Positions 9,701 through 55,485 of a stretch of 64,000 bases of DNA are shown here, piece by piece. Each line of letters opens with the position of its first letter. Within the stretch, counting starts at the first letter, position 1. A model generated the notes under the pieces. It did no database searches. It was not told where the DNA came from and worked only from the letters and a program-made list of their open reading frames with translations. A program made the translations under genes and the position numbers. Source of the stretch: Bacteroidales bacterium (GTDB lineage Bacteria; Bacteroidota; Bacteroidia; Bacteroidales; Rikenellaceae); assembly GCA_910574205.1 (NCBI GenBank), contig CAJSYJ010000003.1, positions 186,001-250,000 on the forward strand, given 5' to 3'.

Positions 9701-9794
9701 TTAGATTATGGTCGCCTTTAATTGCCCTATATCGGTAGCTGTTGTCATCAACCTGTATGTCGAGTATTTCGGTATTGTTATGGAAAATCTTCAT
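6756..9794 (-). CDS. large tail protein (tail hub / spike, Tal-like)
   Basis: 1012 aa. The start ATG at 9794 overlaps the upstream stop as ATGA, which fixes it; the longer frame to 9827 is rejected. The first about 350 residues look like a tail hub or tail-associated (Tal) domain, then a long middle with an oligosaccharide-fold-like insertion and a central helical segment (SDLRKIESNEV). The last about 350 residues are Gly/Tyr/Ser-rich beta structure, typical of a receptor-facing tip. It follows the DGR, so the variable protein upstream is probably its partner at the tail tip. Confidence 0.75.
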   Translation of the reverse strand: MKIFHNNTEILDIQVDDNSYRYRAIKGDHNLTLYFSLAEHVEIPVGAYCVYENETYTLEKPESLKMKHSRYFEYTVVFDSPQAKAGKWKFRNPVDRRLKFPLTAKPIEHLQMFVDNMNQRDSGWTIGRCIDAPEKAISYNHAYCIDALSQMADEWETEYEFVGKQVSLWKVEYNRDNPLPLSYGKGNGFKPGIGRSNYEDSTPIEILYVQGGERNIDASQYGGSELLLPKNQTIRFDGEHFEGEQEFNSSKARTYQTDADGFSIRRADKPLSSQAEDSLDCTEIYPSRVGTISAVTVVDANKHFYDIVDNSIPASLNFEECLIAGETLTIIPQTGMLAGKEFEAKYIHNATGGKAARRFEIVPQDIDGETMPGGNYIPKVGDTYAVFHCMLPAAYICDNATKTGASWDMFRQGVKYLYDNEEQKFTFTGELDGIWAKKDWLNIGGRIKLGGFVQFADERFQPEGVLVRIIGIKDYINNPHSPEIELSNSTVGRTVSSDLRKIESNEVVMDTLHKEALQFTKRRYRDSLETIEMLGDALLDNFSKSINPVAVQTMAMLVGDESLQFRFVNSMTNPMPVVHEVAYDKERKVLSVPAGIVQHLTLGITSISASHAVGEYKFWSLPAFQTPTLTAVDSKYYLYAKVSRTNQTGVFYISEQAKPMNAESDSYYLLMGILNSEFDGERSYASLYGFTEILPGRITTDRIVSSDGKSFIDLLKNAVRIGTNGVYIDWNNEELATLIMSNATIKERLKVIGEALIAGFYFSDEVIKSTMKSGNVPAMYLNGKTGKIHLKSTSTGGDYSLDNDGSEIDIDAALGEVSARNDNGVAYLSASGVFCNNAKTNALPISTGYTHYGAVVGLGVGNVNNDWMFEKESTIIAGVYGRASNSGNAPAYGGYFWDLMAAGLILRPKYIGDAGTYYLYDGYTQCLGFSNSGKTATVYLPTGEMEGKVIFAKQIGQGGMRFRARTGQFIFDDISANDYYDVPEGWEAKFTFAIFYLNDVKKEAWLVSRWKF

Positions 9795-10108
9795 CACGTA
9801 AATTGGTATATCTTCCCGTTGCCACACTTGGTGCAGCGGATTGTGGTTATAAACGGAAATTCCTCTTTGGGAATTTGGTCGAGAACACTTTTAATGGCGG
9901 ATGAGTTTGTGAAGAACTTACCCTCTGTTCCGTTCTGCGTGAACTTAATGAGGTAGCGTCCCTCCCCGTGTTGCGTTTTCATTCCGGGGATAAAGTCGAT
10001 AACCTCTATTTCGCTGTTCAGAACGTCCGTGATAGACACCTGTTGGCAGTTGAAAATCTTGCGGTCGTCTTGCTGTGTGATGCCGAGTTCGCTGAAACGC
10101 TTTGCCAT
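9794..10108 (-). CDS. small beta-rich protein between DGR and tail hub
   Basis: 104 aa from the ATG at 10108 (8 residues shorter than the longest frame). Alternating hydrophobic strands, a basic/aromatic surface (KFTQNGTEGKFFTN) and a TIRCTKCGNGK motif suggest an OB-like or ssDNA/RNA-binding fold, but I do not recognise the family with certainty. It is translationally coupled to the tail protein by ATGA. It lies in the same transcript as the DGR reverse transcriptase, where accessory proteins such as Avd are often found; no Avd is otherwise visible. Confidence 0.6.
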   Translation of the reverse strand: MAKRFSELGITQQDDRKIFNCQQVSITDVLNSEIEVIDFIPGMKTQHGEGRYLIKFTQNGTEGKFFTNSSAIKSVLDQIPKEEFPFITTIRCTKCGNGKIYQFT

Positions 10109-10109
10109 A

Positions 10110-10493
10110 TTACCGGATATTAAGAGTTTCACAATCGTCGTCGATTTGACGTTTGATAGCTGCTCGCTCGGCTAAAAAGGCTTTGTATGCAGCGATTTTC
10201 GGCTGGGCGTCGGAACTTGATTTCGCCCCGTAAATGCCCATTGATGCAGCATTGTAGTCGTTGATAAGTTTCTGCTCGTAATCCCTCGGCCATAGGTGGT
10301 TGATTACAGCCTCAGTCAGTTTGTCGCTCGTTACCGTACCCCACACGACAACTTCCTGACACTCCCATTTCGTTGTGGTTTCTTCCGTGTCAGTTCCGGC
10401 AGGAATTTCAACTTCTTTAATGTCCCAACGGTAGGTGTAAGAACCGTCCCCGTTTGCCTCATAGATAGAGGGCTTTTTGTCATAGGTTGCCAT
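10110..10493 (-). CDS. tail-fibre-assembly-like small protein
   Basis: 127 aa. The N-terminal half is polar; the C-terminal half (PRDYEQKLINDYNAASMGI ... AYKAFLAERAAIKRQI) matches the pattern of small fibre-associated proteins found after fibre genes in Bacteroidales phages. The start overlaps the end of the RT gene by 14 nt. Role inferred from pattern and position. Confidence 0.55.
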   Translation of the reverse strand: MATYDKKPSIYEANGDGSYTYRWDIKEVEIPAGTDTEETTTKWECQEVVVWGTVTSDKLTEAVINHLWPRDYEQKLINDYNAASMGIYGAKSSSDAQPKIAAYKAFLAERAAIKRQIDDDCETLNIR

Positions 10494-11514
10494 AGAAATT
10501 CGGTTTAATTATGGTTTTCAATAAATGTTTTGAATTGCTGTGCTTTGCCCAGCCGAGCCAACTGCACACACCTTGTTTGTAGTCTTTGGCAGATAGGTTA
10601 GGCTGCTTGTTGAGCCGGGCGGCAGCACGGCAAAAATTCTTTTTGATGCTCTTGCGAATTAGCTTGTGTTCATGGTAAAAAACAAACCCTACGAAATCCA
10701 ATCCTCGTCCGTGCTTATCGCTACGGCTTTTGGCGATAGGAAATACCTGATAATTGGCCTTAATCGTCAAATGCAGGTTATCACGGAGGTAGGTATCTAT
10801 CCGTGTAAGTAAATCATGTAGGAATGCTTTGTCCTTATGTAGAAAGACCATGTCGTCGGCGTATCTGAAATAATATCTAACACCAACCTCCTCTTTTATC
10901 CAATGGTCGAAGTATGCGAGGAACAAGTTGGCGAAATATTGGCTTAAATAGTTGCCGATAGGGACACCGGCAGCGCTATCTATGATTTGGTCGAGTAGAG
11001 CCAGCGTGTCCGTGCATTTTATTTTTCGGCGCACGATTTGTTTCAGCACATCATGGTCGATACTCGGATAGAATTTCTTTACGTCGATTTTCAAGCAATA
11101 TCGGGTGTTTTCTACGTCTTTCAATGCTTTGTCCACTTTCTGCATACACCCGTTTATACCCCTGTTTTTGATGCAGGAGAACGTGTCCGTCGTGAATACC
11201 GAAACCCATATCGGTTCGAGAATGTTCATTATTGCGTGATGAACGATTCTGTCAGGGAAATACGGCAACCGGTATATCTCCCGCTCTTTGGGGTCTTTGA
11301 TGATGAATGTTTCGTACTGTGATGTTTTGAACGTCTTATTTTTTAGTGCTTCGTGCAAAGCGAGAATATTGGCCTCACGGTTTTTGTCGTGGCGACGTAC
11401 TCCGTAAGAGCGCAGTTTTCCTCGTCTCGCTTTTTGGTCGGCGAGCTGGAGATTTTCTACTGCGATAATCTTGTCATATAAATTTCCTATCCGTTTCATT
11501 GCTTTGCTTTTCAT
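10480..11514 (-). CDS. DGR reverse transcriptase
   Basis: 344 aa from the ATG at 11514 (MKSKAMKRIG; a second ATG at 11499 is also possible). The polymerase motif YADD is at about residues 218-221. Motif 4 reads VPIGNYLSQYFANL, the IGxxxSQ form typical of DGR and related retron/group II-like RTs. C-terminal residues carry the basic thumb. The enzyme copies the template-repeat RNA at 11624-11733 with errors opposite adenines, and the cDNA replaces the variable repeat. Template, target and RT are colinear on the minus strand, a standard DGR order. Confidence 0.95.
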   Translation of the reverse strand: MKSKAMKRIGNLYDKIIAVENLQLADQKARRGKLRSYGVRRHDKNREANILALHEALKNKTFKTSQYETFIIKDPKEREIYRLPYFPDRIVHHAIMNILEPIWVSVFTTDTFSCIKNRGINGCMQKVDKALKDVENTRYCLKIDVKKFYPSIDHDVLKQIVRRKIKCTDTLALLDQIIDSAAGVPIGNYLSQYFANLFLAYFDHWIKEEVGVRYYFRYADDMVFLHKDKAFLHDLLTRIDTYLRDNLHLTIKANYQVFPIAKSRSDKHGRGLDFVGFVFYHEHKLIRKSIKKNFCRAAARLNKQPNLSAKDYKQGVCSWLGWAKHSNSKHLLKTIIKPNFYGNL

Positions 11515-11623
11515 ACTTGGAGCCGTCGGTTTCCCTACCAGCACCTTTTTGTGGTTCGTGTTTTTTTGCCAAGAGGCAAGGTCGTCGTTCTATATTTTTG
11601 TTTCTTATAACCTTGAAAATCAG

Positions 11624-11733
11624 AGGTGAGAGCCGATGTTCGCATTCGTATTCGAGGGGGTGTTATTCGAATTCGCATAGCTGAAGCCTGCATTCGCACC
11701 GTTATTCGCATTACCGCTGAACAGGACACCACG
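11624..11733 (-). repeat. DGR template repeat (TR), 110 bp
   Basis: 110 bp aligned without gaps to 11810-11919. Read in the target frame it encodes Asn-rich sequence (AGFSYANSNNTPSNTNAN), i.e. AAY codons at the positions to be varied, the hallmark of DGR templates. It lies between the target gene and the RT gene. The ends are set where identity stops other than at template adenines. Confidence 0.95.
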
Positions 11734-11787: not shown

Positions 11788-13221
11788 TTACAAATTCGGT
11801 ATAAAGCAAAGGCGAGAGCCGATGTACGCAATCGCAGACGAGGGGGCGTTATTCGAATACGCACAGCCGAAGCCCGCACTCGCACCGTAATGCGCAAAAC
11901 CGCCGAACAGGACACCACGTAATACTGTTCCCGACGAGGGAATGTTAGTATAGTGGTAGTCCGCCCAATAGGTTGTTGAACCCCCGCCGACTACAGCAGG
12001 CATGATGTCGCCGAACTCACCGAAGACAAGTTCTTTAACATAGGATTCGGTTCTGGCTTCCAATCCTCGGAGGGTATAACCATTGTAATTGCTGTCGTTG
12101 TAGTTGGCCGGATTGTCCGCCACATACACTTTTGATGTTCCGCCGTTAGCCTCCGAGGCGATTTGAATGTTGATGCCGTCACTCCAACCCCAAATATGGC
12201 CGAACGGATTTTCTATGCCTCGATAGCGGGGAACCATGACCGTCCCGTGCGTACTTCCGTCGGCTTTTTGCATAACGTAGGCTATCTCGCCCGAAGCGTT
12301 GCCGAGTTCGTCGGTGTAACCGCAGGGCACGAACGGATAATAACCGTTAAATCCGTTCCAATCCGGTGTGTTGGTAACACCGTTGCCGAGACCGCCTTGT
12401 GCAAAGCCATTTGCGTCCTTTTGGGCGTTGAAAGCCGTTTGGCAGTTACGGTTGGCGTATTCCACATAGTAAAGCCAAAATACGGCCTTGTATGCGTTGT
12501 AATCAAGGCAATTCCACTCGCTCGTAGCCGACGCATTGCGGAGGCGGGCTGCGCTGCGGAATGCTGTGCGGCTCTTAACCGTAACAGGGCGTCCGAGGAG
12601 CGACCGATACGTTCCGTCCCAATCCGATTGGTTGTTGCCGCCTCTGTAATCTGTTCCGGCATTGACAACCGAACAGAGTTTGCCCGTACTTCGCTCCATG
12701 GCGGCCTCATACGCCGAAATATACATTTTGGGAACGGCGTGATAGCCGGGCAGAGGGTATTCCGATATTTTGCACCGGCGTATCGTTCCCTCTGTTTCGA
12801 ACTTGCGGTAGTGAGCCGGTATTTCGACCATGACCTGCCCGCGCGAACCGTCCAGCGTGTGGGCTTTCCAGTTTGTCGGGTTCAGATACTCGACGACCGT
12901 TCCGTTGTCGCTCAACAGGCAGCCCCGCATCCGGTTTTGAATGGGGAGGCTTTTATGGAGTGCAATGCTGCCGATACGGGTACACGTCGGTGTCGATACG
13001 GTCGTGTCCCATTGGATGCCGTAGGCGCATTGGTCTTCGACATAAGGGAGCAAGGCGGCTATTTTGCTCTGCTTGGTTTCTCCGTCCGTGTCCATAACCT
13101 CGACAATGAGTTCGAGGGGGTTTACATTCCCAATGTGCGGGAGTTCATTCAACCGCTTGCCGTTGTCGAAAGCGTTGATAATTTGAAGCACTTTTGCTTC
13201 CTGTTCAGGTGTTAATGCCAT
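11788..13221 (-). CDS. DGR target: variable receptor-binding tail protein
   Basis: 477 aa. The C-terminal half has the Trp/Gly/Asn-rich pattern of the formylglycine-enzyme/C-type-lectin fold used by DGR target proteins (for example NPFGHIWGWSDG, YTLRGLEAR, TVLRGVLFGG). The last about 40 residues are encoded by the variable repeat and end IGSRLCFIPNL. The N-terminal about 100 residues are likely the tail-attachment part. The protein should present a hypervariable ligand-binding surface at the tail tip and so change host range. The coiled-coil protein encoded just upstream is a likely stalk. Confidence 0.92.
   Translation of the reverse strand: MALTPEQEAKVLQIINAFDNGKRLNELPHIGNVNPLELIVEVMDTDGETKQSKIAALLPYVEDQCAYGIQWDTTVSTPTCTRIGSIALHKSLPIQNRMRGCLLSDNGTVVEYLNPTNWKAHTLDGSRGQVMVEIPAHYRKFETEGTIRRCKISEYPLPGYHAVPKMYISAYEAAMERSTGKLCSVVNAGTDYRGGNNQSDWDGTYRSLLGRPVTVKSRTAFRSAARLRNASATSEWNCLDYNAYKAVFWLYYVEYANRNCQTAFNAQKDANGFAQGGLGNGVTNTPDWNGFNGYYPFVPCGYTDELGNASGEIAYVMQKADGSTHGTVMVPRYRGIENPFGHIWGWSDGINIQIASEANGGTSKVYVADNPANYNDSNYNGYTLRGLEARTESYVKELVFGEFGDIMPAVVGGGSTTYWADYHYTNIPSSGTVLRGVLFGGFAHYGASAGFGCAYSNNAPSSAIAYIGSRLCFIPNL
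11810..11919 (-). repeat. DGR variable repeat 1 (VR1), 110 bp
   Basis: Same length as the TR with an offset of 186 bp. I count 17 differences and every one is a T in the TR on the + strand, i.e. an adenine on the coding strand. The stretch just outside the repeat on the low-coordinate side (AAGCAAAGG) is shared with the second variable repeat at 49681 but differs in the TR (ATCAGAGG), as expected for the initiation-of-mutagenic-homing region. Confidence 0.95.
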
Positions 13222-39413: not shown

Positions 39414-40124
39414 TTAGAACGGGAGGTCGTCAGGGTCTTCGACAGCCTCCGCTGCGTTGGTGGTCTGCGTTACTTCCATTTGACGCTGTTGGCTTTCGAT
39501 AGGCTTCAACGCCCCGACTATGGGCTGCGCCATGCGTTCCTCCTCGCTCATGGCTTGGTATATCTCTTTCGAGAGGCTTTGTTTGAGGACGTGCGTGTCG
39601 CCGTACCTCTGTTCCCGCATTTCGACGGCTGTGAGGTTCAGATATACGCCTTTCTCTCCGAGGTAAACCCCGCTGTCATCGATGTCGATAACTATGCCCT
39701 CGCAGTAAGGTTCTCCGTCCCGCTTGATTGTGAACGGTGCGTAGGGCATATTGGAGGAAATACGCCAGCTCAATTCCAGTTGATCGTCGGGACACCACTC
39801 GGCTCGAATGAGGCGTGGATTGTCGTCGTTGTCGTACTCGTCCGAAAGCGGCAGAATTTCGTTGCCTATGGCCTTGTGGTAGGTGTTTTCCTCCTCACCG
39901 TCGGCATACAGTTCACCGTCCAAGGCCAGCGCATACTCGCCGCCGTCATACGCTCCGGCCTCATCATAGATAGCCCCTCGCATTTCAAGCAGGTCGTCCG
40001 ATGCCCCGAACAGCACCAGCAGATTGTTCTCCTCGGCAGCCTGTTCCTGTTCCTTTGTCATTTCATCACGGTATTCGTTACCGTTCAGCAGCTCCGCAAG
40101 CTGCTCTTTCGTCATTGTTTTCAT
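39414..40124 (-). CDS. phage protein with SSB-like acidic tail
   Basis: 236 aa. The first about 150 residues match a DUF common on Bacteroidales elements (LLVLFGASDDLLEMRGAIYD; YCEGIVIDID). The C-terminus runs VEDPDDLPF, like the SSB tip DDDIPF that recruits replication proteins. The combination suggests it joins the replication machinery; the body is not an obvious OB fold. Start overlaps the upstream gene by 4 nt. Confidence 0.65.
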   Translation of the reverse strand: MKTMTKEQLAELLNGNEYRDEMTKEQEQAAEENNLLVLFGASDDLLEMRGAIYDEAGAYDGGEYALALDGELYADGEEENTYHKAIGNEILPLSDEYDNDDNPRLIRAEWCPDDQLELSWRISSNMPYAPFTIKRDGEPYCEGIVIDIDDSGVYLGEKGVYLNLTAVEMREQRYGDTHVLKQSLSKEIYQAMSEEERMAQPIVGALKPIESQQRQMEVTQTTNAAEAVEDPDDLPF

Positions 40125-40366
40125 TTTCTCGATTTTTGTTTTGTGAGTTTTTTGATTATCCTATTGAGATAGGCGTTTTCGTGTTCCAAATCCTTTATTT
40201 CCGCCCGCAGAGCCTTGACGGTTTCATTGTATCGTTCCCGCTCGAACCCAGCAAAGGTCTTTTCAGGGCGGCAGGTGCAATTCTCTATACCCATTGCCGC
40301 TGTGCCCATACAGCCTGGGATAAGTACCTTTTCGCCGTCCTCGGTGTATATGTAGTGGCATTTCAT
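40121..40366 (-). CDS. small coiled-coil protein, 81 aa
   Basis: Short beta start, a pair of Cys (GIENCTCRPEK), then a helical, leucine-spaced C-terminus (KALRAEIKDLEHENAYLNRI) likely to dimerise. Overlaps both neighbours by 4 nt. Confidence 0.6.
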   Translation of the reverse strand: MKCHYIYTEDGEKVLIPGCMGTAAMGIENCTCRPEKTFAGFERERYNETVKALRAEIKDLEHENAYLNRIIKKLTKQKSRK

Positions 40367-40560
40367 TTCAATATGTCAATATCTCCGCAGAATACCCATA
40401 TCGGGCGACGGGTAATAAAAGTCTTTATCTGTACTCGATAAGTTTCAAAATCAACCCCAAGTACTGTTTCTTTACGTTGCATAATGCGAGGTAAGTGGTT
40501 GGGGAATGTTATTTTTGTGCCTTTCCCCCATTTATAAAGTTCAAATTCTTGTCGTGTCAT
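40363..40560 (-). CDS. small phage protein, 65 aa
   Basis: Basic, beta-rich, with ETYRVQIKTFITRRPIWVFC. Unrecognised. Part of a tight operon with the next gene (4-nt overlap). Confidence 0.55.
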   Translation of the reverse strand: MTRQEFELYKWGKGTKITFPNHLPRIMQRKETVLGVDFETYRVQIKTFITRRPIWVFCGDIDILK

Positions 40561-40607
40561 AATTCGATGATTTATAATGCGTTTTTTTTATTTGCGTTTC
40601 GTTTTGG

Positions 40608-42224: not shown

Positions 42225-42583
42225 ATTCCGTCGCCTTTCTTCTCGAACCCTTGTAAGCACATAACCTCGTCTCGTTTGCTTGATAGGAGGTGATATACCC
42301 CTTTATAGTCCTGCTTTTCATACAATTCAGCGAGTGTTGCCCAACTGTCGATAATAGGCTTATACCAAGGGAAAATCTCACAGATACGGGGCAGGTCATA
42401 AACCGGAGAAACCTCCGCAAAGGTTACGAGGTCATAGCAGCGGGAAAAGTCGTCCGCATCACTCGGCACGTCAAACCTACCTGCCGAGCCGGAACCTACG
42501 CCCATTAAGCCACACCACATTGTTCTCGACGAAACGCCTACATTGTGAGTGCCTATCCATTCGATCATTTTCTGTGTGTTCAT
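42209..42583 (-). CDS. phage protein, 124 aa
   Basis: Start ATG at 42583, 1 nt after the upstream stop. The segment WIGTHNVGVSSRTMWCGLMG and the DxxDFSRCYDLV pattern are seen in small proteins of Bacteroidales phages; the role is unknown. Overlaps the methyltransferase start. Confidence 0.65.
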   Translation of the reverse strand: MNTQKMIEWIGTHNVGVSSRTMWCGLMGVGSGSAGRFDVPSDADDFSRCYDLVTFAEVSPVYDLPRICEIFPWYKPIIDSWATLAELYEKQDYKGVYHLLSSKRDEVMCLQGFEKKGDGIWIKQ

Positions 42584-42584
42584 A

Positions 42585-43088
42585 TCAGTAACGGAATTTG
42601 GTGAAATGAATAATTGCCATAGGCTTTGCGAAGTCGTGTGCGTTAAACCAATCAAGCCAATCGGCTGGGTGTAGGCCATCATTTTGAGCAACATCATAGT
42701 AGTTATAATATTGGCCTCCGATAATGCACTCCGAAAAATCATTGGTGATTTCTACTTTTTGAATGCCTACGCCGTCCTCCTTTGTCAGCCGGGCAATTTC
42801 AGTCTGTTTGCTGTGGTATGGCTTGCCCATCCATTGTCGGATTGATAGGCAAGCCTCGCCCCGCTCAACCTCGGCGATGCGTTTTTCCCAAAGGGGATAA
42901 TTTACCCGCATCGTGTGGATTTTCCAATCGCATATTTGAATTGGCGTATCATCTGCATCGTCTACGGTAAGTGTCGCTTCGGCGTCGTCAAGAGCATTTG
43001 CCAGCTTTTCATGGAAAAATGTAAGGTCGCCAGCACGTCTATGTCCGGCAGGAAACCGCTTTGAGAGTGTGATTACATACGTTTTCAT
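42585..43088 (-). CDS. phage protein, 167 aa
   Basis: Contains KRFPAGHRRAGDLTFFHEKL and CLSIRQWMGKPYHSKQTEIARL, a pattern like ASCH/PUA-type small nucleic-acid-binding domains, though not certain. Lies between two methyltransferase genes. Confidence 0.6.
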   Translation of the reverse strand: MKTYVITLSKRFPAGHRRAGDLTFFHEKLANALDDAEATLTVDDADDTPIQICDWKIHTMRVNYPLWEKRIAEVERGEACLSIRQWMGKPYHSKQTEIARLTKEDGVGIQKVEITNDFSECIIGGQYYNYYDVAQNDGLHPADWLDWFNAHDFAKPMAIIHFTKFRY

Positions 43089-43103
43089 ACTGTTATTGAG
43101 GTG

Positions 43104-44054
43104 TTAAATGAATAATCCAAGTTCTTTTTTCAACCGCTTATCGGCGATTTCTATGTATTCAGGGTTCAACTCGAACCCAATGTATTTGCGGTTGAATTTT
43201 CGGGCGACTATGCCTGTCGTTCCGGAACCCATGAAAGGGTCAAGGACGATTCCATTTTCGGGGCATCCGGCTAAAATGCAATCGGCTACCAATTTTTCGG
43301 GGAATGTTGCAAAATGCGCTTCTTGCAGCGGTTGTGTCGGTACTGTCCATACGTCTCTTTTGTTCCGAAATTCCCTGTCGATATATGCGTTGCCGCTTTT
43401 TGTCCGGTAAAACTTTTCGGGGGTCGCCGTGTATTTGTTTCCACCATACCGAGGAGCATCGGTCGGAATTGTGCCGGTTGTTACGGCTTTTTCATGAATA
43501 GCCTCACAATCGAAGTAATATTTCGGGGACTTGGTGAGCAGGAAAATATATTCGTGGGATTTCGTACACCGGTCTTTCATGCTTTCCGGCATGGGGTTAG
43601 GCTTCGCCCAAATAATATCCTGCCGTAGGAACCAACCGTCCGTCCGTAGCGCAAAGGCCAACATCCAAGGTATGCCAATAAGGTCTTTGCTCTTGTAACC
43701 GTCGAATTTCTTGACTATGGTCGAGCAGCCAACAGTTCCTCGATTTGTCCCCTGCTTGTATTTCACGGCATTGTCGGGATAATTGGCCGCCCCTTTCCCG
43801 CTGCCAGCGTAACAATCCCCGATATTTATCCACAATGTCCCAGCCGGGGCTAACACTCGCTTTACCTCGTGGAATACGCCGACCAATTTCTGAATGTACT
43901 GTTCGGGGCTTTCCTCTAATCCGATTTGGCCGGTTACACCGTAATCCCGCAGGTTGAAATATGGCGGAGACGTAACACAGCAATCTATGCTATCGTCAGG
44001 GAGATTGCGCAACCCCGTAAGGCAGTCTATATTGTATATTATATTCGTTTCCAT
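43104..44054 (-). CDS. DNA adenine/cytosine-N4 methyltransferase (beta class)
   Basis: 316 aa from the ATG at 44054. Catalytic motif TSPPYFNLRDYG at residues 28-39 precedes the SAM motif LDPFMGSGTTG near residue 275, the beta-class order. Close to solitary phage and CcrM-like enzymes by layout. Third methyltransferase of the prophage. No restriction partner seen. Confidence 0.88.
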   Translation of the reverse strand: METNIIYNIDCLTGLRNLPDDSIDCCVTSPPYFNLRDYGVTGQIGLEESPEQYIQKLVGVFHEVKRVLAPAGTLWINIGDCYAGSGKGAANYPDNAVKYKQGTNRGTVGCSTIVKKFDGYKSKDLIGIPWMLAFALRTDGWFLRQDIIWAKPNPMPESMKDRCTKSHEYIFLLTKSPKYYFDCEAIHEKAVTTGTIPTDAPRYGGNKYTATPEKFYRTKSGNAYIDREFRNKRDVWTVPTQPLQEAHFATFPEKLVADCILAGCPENGIVLDPFMGSGTTGIVARKFNRKYIGFELNPEYIEIADKRLKKELGLFI

Positions 44055-44058
44055 ACTT

Positions 44059-45891
44059 TTAGAATGGGCAGTCGTCATCCGGCATGTCGTCGTCATGGAA
44101 GTCAAACACGCTGTTTCGGCATGCTTCCTCCAATAGTTCTTGTTGGTGTTGTTGCAGGTGGTTGTCATTATCCCACTTGATAGCATCGAAGCTGCTACCG
44201 TCGAAAGGCACATACCGCCCGTTATTTATGTTGTACTTGAATTGGCAAGTCCCGCACTCTCCGAGGTGCCGGAACTTGACTTTTTGAACGTGAACCTCGA
44301 CCGTGTTTTCCAAGCGGTTCCGGTGTACCACGATGCCGAAATCGGCTTTGTTGTAGAAGTTGGCCGAGCCGCTGATGTCATACAACGTCGGGGCTTCAAT
44401 TACACCGTCTTTATTCTTCGGCTGCTTGGTCGGGTGCGCCATTAGAATTATGAGGATGTCGTTGATTTGAGCGAAATTCGTCAGCTTGTCGAGCAGTTCG
44501 CTGATGTACTGCGTTTCGTTCCGGTTCCCCTGTTGGCTTTCCAAACGGTTGTATGGGTCGATTACGAGGGCTTTGATGCCCCGCCGCCGGACGAGGAATT
44601 TGGCTTTTTCGAGGATTGTATCTACTCGGAAATTGTCCGCAGGGCTGATGAAATAGAAATTATCTTCGAGGTGTTCTTTTACCAGCCGATACTCCCCGAA
44701 TTTAAGCGTTTCCTTGCTGAACCGCTTGCCGGTGAACTTCTCTATCAACTTGGAGGCGTGATAGGCGAGCGGGGCATTTTCAGGGCTGAAATAGGCAAAT
44801 CTCCACCCGTACCGCATATTCAACCGCTCGGCAATCTCGTCGATAAACTCCGATTTACCACTGCCCGGAATACCTGTTACGATGCAGAGGCGTTTTGTCT
44901 CGAAAGAACACAACCGGTCAAAGTTGTCATGCCCGATTGTTACTCCCTTTTGTAGACCGTGTTCAAAAATGGCGTCCAGCGATTGTTCAAAGTCTGAAAC
45001 CGTGAAAATTCCCTCTACTTTTACCTCCGGCGCATCGTTGAGGCATTTCAGGAGGCTATCCCGCCCGAATTTCATCAGGTGTTCGTTGGCATCTTTGCAC
45101 CCCTCCCCGTATTCGAGAATGCGGCAGCGGTCAGCTCCGAATCGCCGCAACAACTCATCACGCAGGATGACGCCTTTGGTGTCGGTGTCCGATGCAATGA
45201 AAATCGTATCTTTGTCCTCAAAATACTCCTCGATGTAATCGTCAAGGTAAGAGAGATTAGCATTTGCTCCGTTCGGAACACTTACAACGTCGGTACGCCC
45301 GCACTCAACAAAGGAAAGGGCATCCATTTCACCCTCCGTGATGATACACTCCTTTTGCCCTTTAATAGCGTCAATGTTGTACGGTAGCAGTTCTGCTCCC
45401 GATACCATTTTGAAGCATTTGTCGCCTGTGCGGAACTTCGTGTTCACCAATTCGCCCTTGTGGTAGTAGTTGAATTGGATAGTGTTGGCTTGTCCGTTTT
45501 TCTGCGGCATCCACTCCATGCCCTCCGTAATCCGCATTTGTTCGAGCGTCTTTTGGCTGATTCCCCGGCCGGCAAACCAAGCAATAGCCTTGCTGCCCAT
45601 TGTGGTATTACCCGTCTGTTTGGGCTTTTTGTATTCGGGTTTCTGCCGAGCCAGCGGGCGAGGGTTGTAGAATGGTTTATCCCACCGCTGTTCTTTCTCG
45701 GCGGCGCAACCCGCCCACCCGCAGTAATGGCAGTTGAATACACCGGTAGCCAAGTCCACCGAAAGGCTTTTATCCCGTTTATTGTGGCGACTATCCCTGC
45801 ATTGAGGGCAATAGGTCTTGATGTTGCCGCTCGTGCGATTATACGGGATTTCGATTCCCAACTCTCTCCACCGCATCATAACAGCACCCAT
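44059..45891 (-). CDS. primase-helicase (T7 gp4/Twinkle type)
   Basis: 610 aa. Zinc ribbon Cys28/31/54/57, then TOPRIM motifs CIITEGEMDALSF and IFIASDTDTKG, then RecA/DnaB helicase Walker A IVTGIPGSGKSEF. The C-terminus ends DDDMPDDDCPF, an acidic tail with a terminal Phe like T7 gp4 and SSB. It would prime and unwind at the phage fork. It overlaps the upstream DUF4373 gene by 16 nt. Confidence 0.93.
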   Translation of the reverse strand: MGAVMMRWRELGIEIPYNRTSGNIKTYCPQCRDSRHNKRDKSLSVDLATGVFNCHYCGWAGCAAEKEQRWDKPFYNPRPLARQKPEYKKPKQTGNTTMGSKAIAWFAGRGISQKTLEQMRITEGMEWMPQKNGQANTIQFNYYHKGELVNTKFRTGDKCFKMVSGAELLPYNIDAIKGQKECIITEGEMDALSFVECGRTDVVSVPNGANANLSYLDDYIEEYFEDKDTIFIASDTDTKGVILRDELLRRFGADRCRILEYGEGCKDANEHLMKFGRDSLLKCLNDAPEVKVEGIFTVSDFEQSLDAIFEHGLQKGVTIGHDNFDRLCSFETKRLCIVTGIPGSGKSEFIDEIAERLNMRYGWRFAYFSPENAPLAYHASKLIEKFTGKRFSKETLKFGEYRLVKEHLEDNFYFISPADNFRVDTILEKAKFLVRRRGIKALVIDPYNRLESQQGNRNETQYISELLDKLTNFAQINDILIILMAHPTKQPKNKDGVIEAPTLYDISGSANFYNKADFGIVVHRNRLENTVEVHVQKVKFRHLGECGTCQFKYNINNGRYVPFDGSSFDAIKWDNDNHLQQHQQELLEEACRNSVFDFHDDDMPDDDCPF

Positions 45892-46826
45892 TTTTGTGTT
45901 GAACTATCCCAAGCATATTTATCGCCCGGTCGAGGGGGAGCATTCATCGGGATTGTAACCTTTCCCGACCCATACGTCCGGCGTCCGTTCTCGATGCGCT
46001 CATCACAGCCGAGAGTTGCGGAACCGGCTTTGCGTTGCTGGCCTTTGTTGGCGTAGTTTCCCTCCATGACCTTAACCCAGTTCGTGCCGTTGTTAAACAG
46101 CCAATCGAACGTCGCTTGCCAATTCGATTTGTTTTCGCCCCGTAGAAAGTTTGATGATTCAACCTCCTCAAACAAAGCCTCGCAGGTCGGCATCCAGCTT
46201 TCAGGCTTGCCGAACTCGTTGAGCCTGGCTTTTATCTTTGCCCGCCGAGGGTCTGATAACTTCGATATTTTCGGGAGGCTCTTGCATATCGAGTTCCACA
46301 GGTTGGCAATATCCTGATAAGGATATTTTATTTCTCCTTTCTTTTCCTCTCCTTTGCTCTCCTCTCCTTTACTATGTTGTTTCGGGCTGCCATTTGCATC
46401 GGCTTCGTCTATTTCGACGGGGTTTTGGCTCGCCATAACTCCGCCATTATTCGATTCACCTGCATTTTGGTTGTCAGAAATGCGCTTCCGTTCTCTGTTG
46501 GCGAGCAGAGAGGCAAACCGTTGCTGGTGGGCTTGGGAAACGAGTTTATTCCCAGCCCGCTGCAACAGTCCGATTTTTACGCAGTATTCAACAATATCGG
46601 TCAGTTCGCTAACCGATACATCATAATCCGCCGCAAGGAGTTCTATGTTTATTTCCTCCCACTCAACCTCGAAAAAGTCGCTGTCTGTGAGTGTTTCCAA
46701 CAAGTAATTCCATACGGCATACCCTGTGTGGGAAAATTTACGGCGGAGAGCCTTTATTTTCACGTCATTACGCATATCGGCGTCATGCGTGAAATACTCT
46801 GCATTATTTTTCTTGGGTCTTGCCAT
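45876..46826 (-). CDS. DUF4373-type replication initiator candidate
   Basis: 316 aa. The N-terminal about 110 residues match DUF4373/Lin1244-like winged-helix domains (FTHDADMRNDVKIKALRRKF; GYAVWNYLLETL). A Lys/Glu-rich linker (SKGEESKGEEKKGE) is encoded by 15-bp repeats. The C-terminal half (IANLWNSICKSLPKISKLSD) is the segment common to phage replication proteins. Upstream of the primase-helicase, it is the likely origin-binding protein, as lambda O. Confidence 0.8.
   Translation of the reverse strand: MARPKKNNAEYFTHDADMRNDVKIKALRRKFSHTGYAVWNYLLETLTDSDFFEVEWEEINIELLAADYDVSVSELTDIVEYCVKIGLLQRAGNKLVSQAHQQRFASLLANRERKRISDNQNAGESNNGGVMASQNPVEIDEADANGSPKQHSKGEESKGEEKKGEIKYPYQDIANLWNSICKSLPKISKLSDPRRAKIKARLNEFGKPESWMPTCEALFEEVESSNFLRGENKSNWQATFDWLFNNGTNWVKVMEGNYANKGQQRKAGSATLGCDERIENGRRTYGSGKVTIPMNAPPRPGDKYAWDSSTQKWVLL
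46311..46373. repeat. iterons and palindrome inside the initiator gene: candidate origin
   Basis: On the minus strand three units start AAAGGAGAG/AAAGGAGAA at an exact 15-bp spacing (46327-46373) and are followed by AT-rich DNA and a palindrome ATATCC-TGATAA-GGATAT (46311-46328 on the + strand). Iterons within the initiator gene recall the lambda origin in gene O. Confidence 0.5.
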
Positions 46827-46830
46827 ATCC

Positions 46831-48210
46831 TCAATTTTTAAGTGTCGCTAAAAGAGATTGACGGAGGTTTTCGTTGTGGGCTTTCCACTCGAAATTTGCC
46901 AAACACCATTGTCGATAGCTGGCCGGAATGTTGGCTATGCGCTCGCCTTTGTACTTTCCGAAAGGCATAACCTCGATGATAGCTTTGTTTCCGGCATCCA
47001 TAGCGTCCACGTCTTTTTTCGTTACCCGTCCGATGTCGCTGATAGGAATACCGCTCAACAACTTGCCGCCGCTGCCGAACATTCTCCATATTTTTCCCCG
47101 TTCAAATGTGATGTCCTCGACCTTGCCGAAACGTGCTACGTTGCCGCCGAGGTCTATGATGAGGGCGTCTTGTTTGCTCTCGTCGATTCGTGTTGCTCGT
47201 CCGATGATTTGGTAATACAGGGCGATTGAGGCCGTCGAAATTCCGAGAACGATACAATCTATTCCCGTGTAGTCGAAACCCGTTGAAAGTACCCGCACGT
47301 TGAAAATTACCCGTATGCGTCCGGCTCTGAACTCCGAGATTACATAATCCCGCTGCCGTTTATCCATATCGCCGTAAATCACGGCTGAATTTTCATACCG
47401 CTGCGATAGGTCTATAGCGTCCTGTACGCTTGGAACAAATGCGAGAATGTGCCTGCGGTCTTGATTGCTGTCGAGAGCGTTGATTATACCGCCTGCTCCG
47501 TTGTTGGCGTTGTAGGCTTGTTGTACGCTGGATTCTGTGTATTCGGATTTTGAGGTGTTGAACACGAGCATACTGTCGTCAAAATCGGCAGCTTGATATA
47601 CGAGTTTACTCCAAAATCCGAGTTCCACCATTTCCCGAACCTGCCCGACATGGATAATGTTCTTGAAAAAATTGCCTTTCTTGCTGCGAGATGTCAGCAT
47701 CACGAGTTTGGAAAACGTGTTGCCGTCCATATCTCGGTTGGTCTGCAATTTGACCGGCGTGGCCGTTATGCCAAGAACGTGTGTAATTCCGCTTTCTTCG
47801 AGAAACTTGCCGAGCATACTATCGGATTCACGAGGGTATAGATGTGCCTCGTCAATGAGCATTTTTGTGAAGCCCATTTGCTTGAATGTCGCTCCGAGTG
47901 ATTTGATACTGCCGATAGTGGCGTAGGTTATTTGGGCGATGTCCTTTCGCCCGAATGATGCGGAGTAGATACCGGCGTTGGTTACGAATCCGCATAACGA
48001 GAGGTATTTTTTGTAGTTCTGCTCCAACAGCTCCTTTGAGGGTTGCAAAACGAGCAGTTTATCCGTGCAGTTCTTCGCAACAAAAGCCGTAAGGATTGAT
48101 TTTCCCCACGCTGTGGGGAGGACTATCAAACTTGGTTTCGGGTTCTTTTCGTTGAAGAATGCAATCGCCTTTTTTATCGGCTCTGATTGGTTGCTGCGTA
48201 ACGTAATCAT
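46831..48210 (-). CDS. SF2 DEAH helicase with DUF3820-like C-terminus
   Basis: 459 aa. Walker A LPTAWGKS at residues 31-38, DEAH in MLIDEAHLYPRES, motif III GITATPV, motif V VLSTGFDYTGIDC and motif VI IGRATRID are intact. The last about 45 residues (MPFGKYKGERIANIPASYRQ) form a DUF3820-like module found in several nucleic-acid enzymes. Likely branch migration or recombination helicase; it neighbours the exonuclease. Confidence 0.88.
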   Translation of the reverse strand: MITLRSNQSEPIKKAIAFFNEKNPKPSLIVLPTAWGKSILTAFVAKNCTDKLLVLQPSKELLEQNYKKYLSLCGFVTNAGIYSASFGRKDIAQITYATIGSIKSLGATFKQMGFTKMLIDEAHLYPRESDSMLGKFLEESGITHVLGITATPVKLQTNRDMDGNTFSKLVMLTSRSKKGNFFKNIIHVGQVREMVELGFWSKLVYQAADFDDSMLVFNTSKSEYTESSVQQAYNANNGAGGIINALDSNQDRRHILAFVPSVQDAIDLSQRYENSAVIYGDMDKRQRDYVISEFRAGRIRVIFNVRVLSTGFDYTGIDCIVLGISTASIALYYQIIGRATRIDESKQDALIIDLGGNVARFGKVEDITFERGKIWRMFGSGGKLLSGIPISDIGRVTKKDVDAMDAGNKAIIEVMPFGKYKGERIANIPASYRQWCLANFEWKAHNENLRQSLLATLKN

Positions 48211-48344
48211 AGCCGTATAGTGTTAAAAAGCACCGTATTTAGGGCTACCACGCATAACAGGAGCGTAGGGATGCCTTTCGGCCATTCCCACCCATATACA
48301 GTGCTATATTCTTTCTTATTCATACTCTGTTACTTTTGGTTTTG

Positions 48345-48375
48345 CGAAAATAACAAATGATTATAATACAATCAT
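48345..48375 (-). promoter_or_regulatory. dyad (site 6) upstream of the helicase
   Basis: Dyad ATGATTGTATTATAATCAT on the minus strand (48357-48375), followed after 4 nt by TATTTTCG, one mismatch to the -7 consensus (48345-48352). The helicase start is at 48210, giving a long leader. Confidence 0.55.
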
Positions 48376-48433
48376 ATTTTGAGCGATAAAAATTTAACTA
48401 TTCAGTTTATCTTCCCATGATTGTCCTAAAAAA

Positions 48434-48598
48434 TCACTTGGTGTCATTTTCTATCTGCTTTTTACTGTTCAACTTTCTTATCAATATGCCTGCCCGCCGC
48501 TTGATATTGATTGTCTTGGTATCTTTTCCGGGCAGGTCTTGTAAAGCAGCGAGAAGTTTGATGATTTCCTCTCGCTGCTGATTCGATATTGCATACAT
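48434..48598 (-). CDS. 54-aa small basic protein
   Basis: ATG at 48598, stop at 48434. Product begins MYAISNQQREEIIKLLAAL and has TINIKRRAGILIRKLN. Similar short basic proteins follow exonuclease genes in Bacteroidales phages as far as I recall. 5 nt after the exonuclease stop. Likely real; role unknown. Confidence 0.6.
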   Translation of the reverse strand: MYAISNQQREEIIKLLAALQDLPGKDTKTINIKRRAGILIRKLNSKKQIENDTK

Positions 48599-48603
48599 TC
48601 TCA

Positions 48604-49542
48604 CTATTTTAGGATAAAGCGACGTGTGCCCGGCACAATTTTCGTGAACTCTTGTGCGAGGTCGGGGTGGGCTTTCCCGAAAGCCTTGCTATCGAATTTT
48701 GCGCTGTCCTTTGCGGCTTTCCATGTTGCGAGTGTTTGCCCGCCGTAGCTGATAGCCTCAGCATCCCCGAATCCGAGTTTTATTTTTGCTTCAAGTTCTT
48801 CTTTGGTGGCTTCGAGTTGTGCGAGTTCTGCTTTTACCCCTTTCAGTTGATTACAGGCCGTCAGAATGTCGTCGGAAACTTCGATGATTTTACCCTCTGT
48901 GTGGCGAGCGTATTTCGTGATGACGTCGGTAACGGTAGTGGCTTCCGGTTCCACGTTCCCTATGATGTTGTCCACCCAAAAGCGTTCAACCTCCTCAATC
49001 ATCCAGCCGAAGAAGTCAGGGACAAATGCGATGTCCTTATATCCGAATTCTCGGCCGGAGCATAGCCAAGCCAGCGAACCTTGCTTAAACTCCGAGACAC
49101 CGAGCAGGTATTGAACCTGGCAGAACCAATGTTTCGGCAGGTCGTCGGGGTCGATTGACATTTGGGTTGTCTTGCATTCCAAAATTCCCTTGTTGTTCGG
49201 ATTTCGGTGGTCGTCCAACCAATATGTACGGTCGGGAGAAGCCTGCAAGAAGCCCTTTTCGTTGTTCTTGAACAGCCAATCTCCGGCTGAACTTTTGATT
49301 ACCTCTCGGCCTGTTGCGTCAGCCCAAAACTGCGATACGGCATCTTCGAGGTAGTGCCCGGCTTTCATCGCAAATGTTTCGTCTTTGGGGGCATCCAACC
49401 CCTTTTTACGTCTCCATAATTGGTATGGAGTTTCCCACGGATTGAGGCCGAGAATTGTTGCTACTTCGGAACTTCCGATACCGTCTTTGCGGTATTCGAG
49501 CCATTCGGCTCTGTCTTTGGGGCGTATTACTGTATTGCTCAT
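48604..49542 (-). CDS. YqaJ-type recombination exonuclease
   Basis: 312 aa. Starts with EWLEYRKDGIGSSEVATILG and NPWETPYQLW, the YqaJ/lambda-exonuclease signature; catalytic acids at ASPDRTYWL and GILECKTTQ. C-terminal about 90 residues are helical. Degrades 5' strands to give 3' tails for the annealing protein encoded two genes upstream. Confidence 0.92.
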   Translation of the reverse strand: MSNTVIRPKDRAEWLEYRKDGIGSSEVATILGLNPWETPYQLWRRKKGLDAPKDETFAMKAGHYLEDAVSQFWADATGREVIKSSAGDWLFKNNEKGFLQASPDRTYWLDDHRNPNNKGILECKTTQMSIDPDDLPKHWFCQVQYLLGVSEFKQGSLAWLCSGREFGYKDIAFVPDFFGWMIEEVERFWVDNIIGNVEPEATTVTDVITKYARHTEGKIIEVSDDILTACNQLKGVKAELAQLEATKEELEAKIKLGFGDAEAISYGGQTLATWKAAKDSAKFDSKAFGKAHPDLAQEFTKIVPGTRRFILK

Positions 49543-49595: not shown

Positions 49596-50168
49596 TTACT
49601 TTTTAATCAGGTTGAAATCAGCCCATAATTTGATGAACTGCTTCCCGCAGTAAATGGCGAGGTCGCTGCTTCGCAAGCAAAGGCGAGAGCCGACGTTCGC
49701 ATGCGTAATCGAGGGGGCGTAATCCGAAATCGCAGAGCCGAAGCCCGCATATTCAGTTACATAGTCGCCGGTGTCAATCATTCGCCGCTCCTGCTTTTCC
49801 CCGTCGCCCATGTCGTCGAGTTCCGCCTGTGTGTAGAGGTAGAACCAAGGATAATACCGCCATTCATCCTCAGTAAACTGCGGTTCCCAGCCCTCGTTGA
49901 TAGCGGCACAGATGATGCGGAGTTTGAGGTAGGCGGCAAGGTCTGCGGAGCAGCATCCCTGCCAATAGTTCCACTCTTTTACAAGAGGATGTTCATCGCC
50001 AAGCTCCTTGCAGGCATCCTCGAACGTCTTGATACGTTCTGTTACGGGACGGTTGTCTGTGGCGGTTACTGCATCGCCGAACAATGTGGCGAGCAATTTT
50101 TTCGTGTTGTCGTCAGCCTGTTTGTAAGCTGCTTCGAGGTTCGTTTTTTTGATTTCTACGTTATCCAT
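49596..50168 (-). CDS. second DGR target protein in the recombination operon
   Basis: 190 aa. Residues about 1-135 are conserved-looking phage sequence (TERIKTFEDACKELGDEHPL; WYYPWFYLYTQAELDD-like). Residues about 139-163 are encoded by a stretch that matches the DGR template with adenine-only differences, in the same frame as the tail target (AGFGSAISDYAPS ... ANVGSRLC). Unlike the tail protein, about 25 residues follow the variable part. I do not know the function. Proteins of this family occur in other Bacteroidales phages. It lies between the annealing-protein and exonuclease genes. Confidence 0.85.
   Translation of the reverse strand: MDNVEIKKTNLEAAYKQADDNTKKLLATLFGDAVTATDNRPVTERIKTFEDACKELGDEHPLVKEWNYWQGCCSADLAAYLKLRIICAAINEGWEPQFTEDEWRYYPWFYLYTQAELDDMGDGEKQERRMIDTGDYVTEYAGFGSAISDYAPSITHANVGSRLCLRSSDLAIYCGKQFIKLWADFNLIKK
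49681..49751 (-). repeat. DGR variable repeat 2 (VR2), about 71 bp
   Basis: Aligns to TR 11624-11694 without gaps. I count 11 differences, all at T of the TR on the + strand (coding-strand adenine). The low-coordinate flank AAGCAA is shared with VR1 and not with the TR. Identity stops at about 49751. Confidence 0.9.
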
Positions 50169-50198: not shown

Positions 50199-51089
50199 TT
50201 ATTTATTGGTCATTTCACCGGTTTCGGGGTTTACAGCCTCCGGAGTAGCGGCGGGTTGCCCGTCGCCTTGTACTGTGGATGAAGATGCTGCGGCGGCTTC
50301 CGCAACCTTTTGGCGTTTGGCTTCGGCCTGTTTTCGGGCTTCCTCGTCCAACTTCTCTGCGTCGGCGGTGTTCTGCTTGAATGTCTCGGCTACGGTCGTT
50401 GTACCCTCCTTTATGGCGTTTTTCAGGCCGCTCAACTCGAACACCATTTCGCTGGTGATTTCTTCAATGCGTTTCACTCCGCAGTAGGTGAGGATGTCCG
50501 CCTGCGATACGCCCAATTTGCCGAAGTAGGCAATCATATTCTGTCTGCGGGTTTCGAGGTCTATGGATTTGCCGAGTGCAACCTGTTTGATTTCGTCGAT
50601 AACCCGCTTCGTTACGGCTTTCGGAACTACTTTCAGAACTGCATTTCGGAAAGCGATTGCCGATGCTGCGTTGCCGGTTGTAACCTGCATATCTTCCGAG
50701 TAGGTTCTGCCGGTTTTATCCGTTATGCGGCGTTTCACTTCGACCGAAACGGCAAGGTTGGTTTCGAGGTCATGGCATACGCCTTGCGCCGTGATAGTCT
50801 TGCCGTCGTTTCCGATGATGCGGGTTTGTACCCGCATATTTCCCCATGCCCCTGCGATAATTTCTGCGAGGCGTACCGATACGCCCTCAATGAGAGTTCC
50901 CTGTCGGCGCAGGGCATAGAAACAATCTTCCGCCGTCGAGTTATCAAGTGTGGCGATTGTTTTGATGTTGTTCAATGCCCCGTAAATATCACGGGGATAC
51001 TGCTTTGCGGTGGCGATTTGCGTATCTACCTCCGCCCGGTTGATTGCTTGCAGCATATCAGCCTGTTTGATTTCAATAATATCACTCAT
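50199..51089 (-). CDS. candidate single-strand annealing protein
   Basis: 296 aa. Pattern fits phage annealing proteins (Erf/RecT-like): VRLAEIIAGAWGNMRVQTRI, SVEVKRRITDKTGRTYSEDM, GNAASAIAFRNAVLKVVPK. C-terminal about 60 residues are Ala/Glu/Gln-rich and disordered. Location one gene before the YqaJ exonuclease supports it. I cannot assign a subfamily. Confidence 0.65.
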   Translation of the reverse strand: MSDIIEIKQADMLQAINRAEVDTQIATAKQYPRDIYGALNNIKTIATLDNSTAEDCFYALRRQGTLIEGVSVRLAEIIAGAWGNMRVQTRIIGNDGKTITAQGVCHDLETNLAVSVEVKRRITDKTGRTYSEDMQVTTGNAASAIAFRNAVLKVVPKAVTKRVIDEIKQVALGKSIDLETRRQNMIAYFGKLGVSQADILTYCGVKRIEEITSEMVFELSGLKNAIKEGTTTVAETFKQNTADAEKLDEEARKQAEAKRQKVAEAAAASSSTVQGDGQPAATPEAVNPETGEMTNK

Positions 51090-54148: not shown

Positions 54149-55315
54149 CTATTCCGTATCGGGTTCCTCCGGCAAGATGTTCGGTATCATCGACACGGCC
54201 TCTTGCTTCTTTTTGTCGAGGATTTTGGCATATATTTGGGTGGTCTGAATTTCTTTGTGTCCGAGTAATTTTTGCAGGGTGTAAATTTCTGCTCCGAGGT
54301 CGAGCATCAATACAGCAAACGTATGCCGGCCGGAATGAAATGTGATGTCCTTTGTTATGCCGGCACGCACAGCCCACATTCTTAACTCTGTTATCATATA
54401 GGAGCTGTATTTGAAGCCGACGAATACTCTGTCGTCGGGTTTACCCCGTTTGCCCAAGTAGGAGGCCGCCTGCGGGTTGATGTCAAGGTATTCTTGCCCG
54501 CCTGTTTTTTTCTGTTTGAAAATAATGCGAGTGAACTCCCCTTGCTGCTGAACTTCTTTCCACCGCATTTTCTCGATGTCGCTTTTGCGGATTCCTGTCA
54601 AGCAACTGAACATAAATGCCTTTTTCAACGCCGGATATTTGCAATGTGCCGCAGCCATAGCCTTGACTTCATCGAGCGTAAGGTAACAGCGTTCCGATTC
54701 CCCTGCTCTGAACCCCTCAATACCACGCAGGGGGTTATGGGGTATAATGCGGTCGTCGAACGCCTGATTTATGCACGCCCGTAATTTGTTGAAATAACTT
54801 ACTTTTGAATTTTGCGACAATGGCTTTGAAACCTCATCCGTTACTATCTTCTTGCGCTTATCCCTGCAACGGGCGGTTTTATCCAAATATTCACGAAAGC
54901 CCTCTATCCATTCCGGCGTGATGTCTTTGAACGAGGTGTTCGGCCTGCAATACCGTTCGAGGTGTTTTAAGCAGCTATGCCAATTTCCCCAATTTCCGTT
55001 GCTGTCTGTGCTTCCATGCCGTTTTTCGCACATAGCCCTGTAATAGTCGAGGAAATTGGTTTCGAGTTTGTATGCTGCATTGAACCCAAATTCCCCGTTC
55101 TGTAATTCGACAATCCGTTTCGCTTTCACGGCTTCTGCCAACTGCCAAGTCTGTCGGTTCTTCTCTTTGTCCGCTTTTGTCTTTTCGGGGACGAGATACA
55201 TTTTCAGATACTCATACGACCGTTTTCCATTCAAATATATGTCCAGGTATAGCGACACGTTGCCGGTCGGTGTCGCCCGCTTTCGGAGGCGGATTGGTTC
55301 TTTTGCTGCTCCCAT
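54149..55315 (-). CDS. tyrosine integrase
   Basis: 388 aa from the ATG at 55315. N-terminal arm-binding domain of the Bacteroidetes type (LRKRATPTGNVSLYLDIYLN), then a SAM-like core-binding domain, then the catalytic domain. Catalytic Arg in LTGIRKSDIEKM (about residue 242), HxxR in HSGRHTFAVL (about 330) and Tyr in TQIYAKILD (about 361). Integrates and excises the prophage. Confidence 0.95.
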   Translation of the reverse strand: MGAAKEPIRLRKRATPTGNVSLYLDIYLNGKRSYEYLKMYLVPEKTKADKEKNRQTWQLAEAVKAKRIVELQNGEFGFNAAYKLETNFLDYYRAMCEKRHGSTDSNGNWGNWHSCLKHLERYCRPNTSFKDITPEWIEGFREYLDKTARCRDKRKKIVTDEVSKPLSQNSKVSYFNKLRACINQAFDDRIIPHNPLRGIEGFRAGESERCYLTLDEVKAMAAAHCKYPALKKAFMFSCLTGIRKSDIEKMRWKEVQQQGEFTRIIFKQKKTGGQEYLDINPQAASYLGKRGKPDDRVFVGFKYSSYMITELRMWAVRAGITKDITFHSGRHTFAVLMLDLGAEIYTLQKLLGHKEIQTTQIYAKILDKKKQEAVSMIPNILPEEPDTE

Positions 55316-55485
55316 ATTTGTTGCTTTTGTTGCTTGAATTATTACGAGCAACAAATTAACAACAAAAAATCGATAAATCAAATACAACGTATGTAAAATG
55401 AAACGCCACCAATATGGCAGCGTTAATCATTTATTTATAGGTGTTTATTTGACTTTATTAGCGGTTTGTTTGCGCATCGTTTGAC

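What the first reader, a model, noticed from the sequence alone, without database searches (positions are those of the whole stretch)
49596..50168. A second, remote DGR target inside the phage recombination operon
The stretch 49681-49751 aligns gap-free with the DGR template 38 kb away. All 11 differences fall on coding-strand adenines of the template, and the reading frame is the same as in the tail target (both read AGFG...APS...GSRLC). The low-coordinate flank AAGCAA is shared with VR1 but not with the TR, as expected of a homing signal. The host gene is not a tail protein: it sits between a candidate annealing protein and a YqaJ exonuclease, and about 25 residues follow the variable part. 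A DGR that also diversifies an early or lysogeny-stage protein would be a different use of the system, for example varying an anti-host or anti-phage surface.
Basis: partly seen in the sequence, partly recalled or inferred. Interest (0 to 1): 0.92.

Follow-up and report, generated by a model that had tools for sequence, protein, structure and literature searches.

The report
Phage mutator's second, non-tail target
In a prophage of a gut bacterium, a small gene beside a DNA-recombination nuclease gene carries, 38 kb from the phage's built-in mutation machine, a repeat that differs from that of a near-identical phage only where the machine's template has adenines, so the machine that varies the tail apparently varies this gene too, and its protein likely binds changeable targets inside the host cell.

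Summary
A 40 kb viral contig almost identical to this prophage differs at 33 of 40,250 aligned bases: 13 in VR1, 12 in VR2, none in the TR, 8 elsewhere; all 25 VR differences lie on template adenines. The host gene belongs to an unnamed family (phrog_11581; 7,254 relatives) that is a recurrent DGR target in Bacteroidota phages. Two layouts recur: one remote copy with the tail target beside the RT (window, LoVEphage, Versailles, others), or tandem copies beside TR and RT. In ten contigs whose VRs lie only in family members, no third VR was found. A remote, non-structural second target was reported before (Quimbyvirus, PMC8008677; four prophage species with a distal second VR, PMC12629997), so the kind is known. 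I found no description of the family's breadth, or of DGRs devoted to it, in the papers I could read. Function is unproven; an intracellular hypervariable binder in phage-host or phage-phage conflict is my best guess.

The parts
49596..50168 (-). 190-aa target protein of family phrog_11581 (unknown function), carries VR2
   Evidence: phrog_11581 E 1.8e-76 over residues 1-189; no Pfam or NCBIfam match at E 0.1
49675..49751 (-). VR2, remote variable repeat; AAGCAA at the low-coordinate end is the likely homing signal (IMH)
   Evidence: 12 of 12 mismatches to TR on template A over 49681-49751; 12 of 12 differences from a sister phage on template A
11618..11733 (-). template repeat (TR); the high end is approximate
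   Evidence: the pairing offset to VR1 is 186 nt
11804..11919 (-). VR1, variable repeat at the end of the tail target
   Evidence: 13 of 13 sister-phage differences on template A
11788..13221 (-). tail-type target protein, 477 aa
   Evidence: phrog_5302 tail protein E 1.1e-152
10480..11544 (-). DGR reverse transcriptase, 354 aa, with IGNYLSQ and YADD
   Evidence: RVT_1 2.1e-16, phrog_1423 7e-127, sequence; reading IGxxxSQ as the DGR form is recalled
9794..10132 (-). 112-aa small protein, candidate DGR accessory gene (one ORF, 10110-10493, lies between it and the RT)
   Evidence: related (phmmer 7e-9) to a 98-aa protein directly after the RT in G032; relatives of that protein occur in 54 of 164 family loci, 53 of them within 3 kb of the target
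48604..49542 (-). YqaJ/RecE-like exonuclease, next gene downstream of the target
50199..51089 (-). 296-aa phrog_3657 protein, next gene upstream; annealing role unconfirmed
   Evidence: relative found in 22 of 164 family loci, median distance 31 bp
54149..55387 (-). phage integrase, marks the element as a prophage
   Evidence: phrog_1 3.3e-51

Best explanation
The 190-residue protein at 49596-50168 carries a second variable repeat of the prophage's own DGR, 38 kb from template and reverse transcriptase, and between two near-identical phages its differences fall only on template adenines, so the DGR apparently diversifies it in trans alongside the tail protein. Inferred steps: TR RNA is copied with adenine errors by the RT at 10480-11544, and the cDNA replaces VR2 at the homing signal CGCCTTTGCTT, which lies inside coding sequence because a conserved segment of about 25 residues follows the VR. 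The family is a recurrent DGR target in Bacteroidota phages, either remote from the cassette (as here) or as tandem copies beside it. Inferred and untested: it is made early from the recombination region, stays inside the cell, and presents a randomised surface that binds variable host-defence or rival-phage proteins.
For: Window TR/VR2: 12 of 12 mismatches on A, 50 of 50 non-A positions kept. Sister phage contig: 33 differences in 40,250 aligned bases; VR1 13, VR2 12, TR 0, rest 8; all 25 VR changes on template A. LoVEphage-type genomes: 23 of 23 variable VR columns on template A. Records: RVT_1 found in 21 of 36 family-bearing records; an A-type TR was found in 19 of these 21, not in two (G015, G022). 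Whole-record scan of 19 TR-bearing records including the window: 28 family VRs in 18 of them, 385 of 404 mismatches on A (in the 19th, BT-TP2, the family gene is cut by the record start and was not counted). Genomes: of 34 family genes in 29 chosen genomes, 28 have an RT on the same contig (27 within 65 kb, one at 88 kb), and 25 of those 28 match a TR beside that RT with 339 of 360 mismatches on A (coding strand of five pairs checked; match accepted at 75% A or more). Non-tail: the protein matches the tail PHROG only over the VR (residues 140-167, E 0.0093); 49 of 93 single-copy loci have a recombination-module marker within 3 kb.
Against: 15 of 36 records hold a family gene with no RVT_1 match, some of them long (96.8 and 80.1 kb), though they may be fragments; 6 of 34 family genes in genomes lack an RT on their contig, and 3 of 28 with one gave no A-type TR. 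44 of 93 single-copy loci show none of the recombination markers within 3 kb. Avd was not recognised beside the RT. The target's cellular location, timing and partner are untested; it could be a virion or injected protein. Fold models are weak in the VR (pLDDT 41-43 for the window protein's VR, about 60 for a short relative).
Confidence: 0.72

Rival explanations
1. The protein is a DGR target but belongs to the virion or is injected with the DNA, so that its variation serves adsorption or entry like the tail protein.
For: Viral DGR targets are mostly annotated as tail proteins (PMC8144416, section 9 read); the VR core of the two targets aligns (hhalign probability 85 over 65 columns).
Against: No similarity to tail families outside the VR; gene next to a YqaJ nuclease here, near a recombination marker in 49 of 93 single-copy loci, and between recombination and replication genes in Versailles; ten contigs carry family VRs without any detectable tail VR.
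Confidence: 0.17
2. VR2 is an old duplication of the tail gene end, frozen, with no current mutagenesis.
For: Only the shared motif itself.
Against: 12 adenine-only differences against a phage with 8 differences outside the two VRs in about 40 kb; 23 of 23 in LoVEphage-type genomes.
Confidence: 0.02
3. The protein serves the phage's recombination or the DGR itself (for example a cofactor of retrohoming or of the annealing protein) and variation is a by-product.
For: Lies beside YqaJ and, in other phages, near SbcC, NinB and possibly RecT relatives.
Against: The VR is open and varied in all 28 family VRs of the whole-record scan, and ten contigs hold DGRs whose only detected targets are these proteins, which a by-product would not explain.
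Confidence: 0.09

Closest known systems
Quimbyvirus / LoVEphage DGR with two targets (PMC8008677, section 17 and passages read; LoVEphage PMC8525569, passages read)
   Same: Tail-type target beside the RT plus a remote non-structural target with adenine-only variation; in LoVEphage the remote target is a member of this family (19 of 19 mismatches on A). That Quimbyvirus ORF 80/84 is the same gene is my inference: both phages are about 95% identical to the same B. dorei prophage (CP011531) and share a methyltransferase and tRNA ligase neighbourhood.
   Different: There the gene lies among methyltransferases and a tRNA ligase; here beside a YqaJ exonuclease, in a prophage whose genus-mate is titled Alistipes. 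The section read does not describe the family or its tandem layout.
Second VR distal to the RT in four prophage species (PMC12629997, passages and legend read)
   Same: Remote second VR, reported near counter-defence genes. The paper has three LoVEphage members; three LoVEphage records with AUSP locus tags carry this family, and that these are the paper's phages is my inference.
   Different: No family, fold or tandem arrangement described in the passages read; the figure and supplement were not readable.
Bordetella phage BPP-1 DGR / Mtd (recalled)
   Same: TR-VR adenine mutagenesis, IMH at the VR end.
   Different: One tail target, beside the cassette, VR at the C-terminus, Avd present.
DGR phages with two targets and C-type lectin 'tentaclins' (PMC10743442, Results part 1 and Discussion read)
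   Same: One TR serves two unlike target genes.
   Different: Both targets lie in the cassette and carry C-type lectin domains; by description they are not this family (no sequence comparison was made).

Membership tests
Diversity-generating retroelement (DGR) | Reverse transcriptase beside a template repeat | tested here: met
   RVT_1 2.1e-16 at 10480-11544, TR from 11618
Diversity-generating retroelement (DGR) | VR differs from TR at template adenines only | tested here: met
   VR2 12 of 12 over 49681-49751; extending to the homing signal adds one non-A mismatch
Diversity-generating retroelement (DGR) | Ongoing adenine-specific change between close relatives | tested here: met
   25 of 25 VR differences
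Diversity-generating retroelement (DGR) | VR-side homing signal differing from the TR side | tested here: met
   CCTTTGC in both VRs against CCTCTGA in TR; function not tested
Diversity-generating retroelement (DGR) | Avd-type accessory protein | tested here: inconclusive
   The ORFs at 10110-10493 and 9794-10132 match nothing in Pfam or NCBIfam; other ORFs were not tested for it; a different small protein recurs
Diversity-generating retroelement (DGR) | VR change depends on the RT | not testable with these tools
   needs a gene removal
C-type lectin variable domain | VR lies in a C-type lectin fold | tested here: inconclusive
   Two models, PDB searches without a credible match; low confidence in the VR; weak profile match to the tail target, best over the VR end
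phrog_5302 tail protein | Similarity along the protein | tested here: not met
   E 0.0093, residues 140-167 only
phrog_11581 | Full-length match | tested here: met
   E 1.8e-76, residues 1-189

The most novel reading that the evidence does not exclude
Bacteroidota phages carry a large family of small intracellular 'phage antibodies': proteins of an uncharacterised fold whose surface is rewritten by DGRs so that they bind changing host-defence or rival-phage proteins, with some phages giving their whole DGR to these proteins and none to the tail.
Probability: 0.33. Interest if true: 0.92.

Novelty: new variant of a known kind. Interest (0 to 1): 0.64.

Why it matters
Phage DGRs are usually explained as tools for changing receptor binding. 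A family this widespread (7,254 relatives found), often near recombination genes and in ten contigs the only DGR target detected, suggests that phages also hypermutate a protein that likely acts after entry. It gives one defined protein family, with members in phages induced from isolates (BI-TP1 and PV4-TP1, records stating antibiotic induction), on which the question 'what does a non-tail DGR target bind?' can be tested.

Tried and rejected

Filters told: 86 counts 55 VRs in 38 loci chosen at 80% A or more (748 of 787 mismatches on A); without that choice 821 of 944 over 63 matches in 42 loci. Record sets overlap, and near-duplicate loci were not removed from the 164. The 29 genomes were picked by me from the 78 loci for single copies and long contigs.

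Full report
What is there. The window lies in a 2.33 Mb genome. A genus-mate holding a relative has the same contig place as a record titled uncultured Alistipes sp., so the host is likely Alistipes; 4 of 151 genomes searched in the genus, the window's own included, hold a relative. The element has an integrase, terminase, tape measure protein and replication genes. At 9.8-13.2 kb lies a DGR: tail-type target with VR1, TR, RT. At 49.6-50.2 kb a 190-aa protein carries VR2. VR2 keeps all 50 non-adenine template positions and differs at 12 of 21 adenines over 71 nt; no other place in the window but TR and VR1 does this, the next best having 22 mismatches of 50.

Is it active? IMG/VR contig 3300006217_003254 (40,249 bp) is nearly the same phage, apart from a 10 kb stretch it lacks. 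Over 40,250 aligned bases there are 33 differences: 13 in VR1, 12 in VR2, none in TR, 8 elsewhere. All 13 and all 12 fall on template adenines; outside VR2 the 573-nt gene is identical. Two further contigs carry the same VR2 as that contig, so this is one independent comparison. A second lineage, six LoVEphage-type genomes (two of them identical here), shows 23 variable VR columns, 23 on template adenines, and 31 variable columns in the other 1,069 bases. The pattern shows adenine-templated replacement in nature; that this RT does it is inferred.

The family. phrog_11581 covers the protein end to end. A protein search found 7,254 relatives, 120 listed, 34 of which I aligned with the window protein: the 97% identical one (P0001) differs only within the variable stretch. 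No Pfam, NCBIfam or PADLOC family matches it at E 0.1. Of 36 records that hold a relative (chosen by me from those), 21 have an RVT_1 match. An A-type TR was found in 19 of the 21; G015 and G022 gave none on a second scan. Scanning 19 TR-bearing records (window included) whole gave 38 VRs, of which 28, in 18 records, are in family members, with 385 of 404 mismatches on adenines.

Two layouts. (A) Window, its sister, four further IMG/VR contigs, Versailles, BT-TP2 and LoVEphage: one VR in a large tail-type protein (430-477 aa; 2,262 aa in BT-TP2) beside TR and RT, and one in the remote small protein (in BT-TP2 the small gene is cut by the record start). (B) Ten other IMG/VR contigs: two VRs, both in small family members of about 120-217 aa, beside TR and RT in nine and elsewhere in the record in one (G023); no third VR was found by full-length or local scan, though the contigs may be incomplete. 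Among 163 loci with a strong family ORF, 70 hold two or more such ORFs (55 with RT within 5 kb, 7 with a recombination marker within 3 kb) and 93 hold one (49 with a recombination marker within 3 kb, 5 with RT within 5 kb); near-duplicates were not removed. Each of the 28 family VRs is followed by 23-35 residues, so the homing signal sits in coding sequence; PMC8144416 (sections 8, 9 read) treats VRs at the C-terminus, where homing elements can be intergenic, as the rule.

Whole genomes. In 29 genomes chosen for single copies and long contigs, 34 family genes were found; 28 have an RT on the same contig, 16 of them 33-45 kb away (distances from the printed places). 25 of these 28 match a TR beside that RT, 339 of 360 mismatches on adenines (strand check). 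Against: 6 of 34 have no RT on their contig, and three with an RT gave no A-type TR.

What it does. Shown: it carries the marks of a DGR target, it lies beside a YqaJ/RecE-like nuclease gene, and outside the VR it matches no tail family. In Versailles genes annotated as SbcC-like, recombinational repair, metal-dependent hydrolase and NinB precede it; in G023 it lies between an SbcC-like gene (matching the annotated Versailles one) and one that I read as RecT-like. Inferred: early expression and a cytosolic place (no signal peptide is evident by eye; no predictor was run). A DGR that serves only this protein would be hard to explain by adsorption, so an intracellular binder in phage-host or phage-phage conflict is the reading I commit to, at moderate confidence.

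Prior work. Benler et al. 2021 (PMC8008677, section 17 read) reported a second, non-structural DGR target in Quimbyvirus near nuclease, methyltransferase and tRNA ligase genes. LoVEphage (PMC8525569, passages) and Quimbyvirus align to the same B. dorei prophage, and LoVEphage's remote VR is in this family, so that report likely concerns a member. PMC12629997 (passages, legend) reports four prophage species with a distal second VR near counter-defence genes. PMC8143477 (passages) reports a distant target in B. uniformis phages with the VR at the 3' end, in a protein with DUF1566 or Fib_succ_major motifs. Passages of PMC12386605, PMC6199706, PMC10053308 and PMC6642488 were also seen. In searches (open-licence PMC only; no supplements) and the parts of papers named here I found no description of the family as a whole or of phage DGRs devoted to it. 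The case in the window is thus a member of a reported kind; the family-only layout and the internal VR make the family a variant.

Noticed in passing
G000:C1:640471-641517 (L001, L086): A second RT in the same genome with a TR-like match to the window's TR (72%) and a 124-nt direct repeat pair at 86% (L086 1480-1603 and 1853-1976): likely a second, related DGR elsewhere in the chromosome.
   Followed up: partly
window 38833-48838: IMG/VR contigs L004, L005 and L006, which otherwise match the prophage at over 99% in the aligned stretches, lack this 10 kb with the same junction, which falls inside the YqaJ gene.
   Followed up: no
window 9794-10132; G017 17590-17886; G020 2215-2514; G027 17579-17875; G032 40633-40929: A small protein of about 98-112 aa recurs in these DGRs, directly after the reverse transcriptase in the four contigs and one ORF further on in the window; relatives are in 54 of 164 loci, and in G009 and G013 the match lies within the RT ORF itself. 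It may replace Avd as accessory gene.
   Followed up: partly
G023, G024, G027, G031, G032, G033, just downstream of the TR: A shared motif GACCTTGCC with a short hairpin (such as TTGCCAACACGGCAA) follows the TR, possibly part of the template RNA.
   Followed up: no
L006 5772-6341: In this contig the family gene differs from its sisters at the start codon and in the fifth codon, where a stop is read; error or decay.
   Followed up: no
L092, L093 (LoVEphage RT): The LoVEphage RT matches in two separate pieces, as overlapping frames were reported for Quimbyvirus, yet its remote VR varies at adenines.
   Followed up: partly
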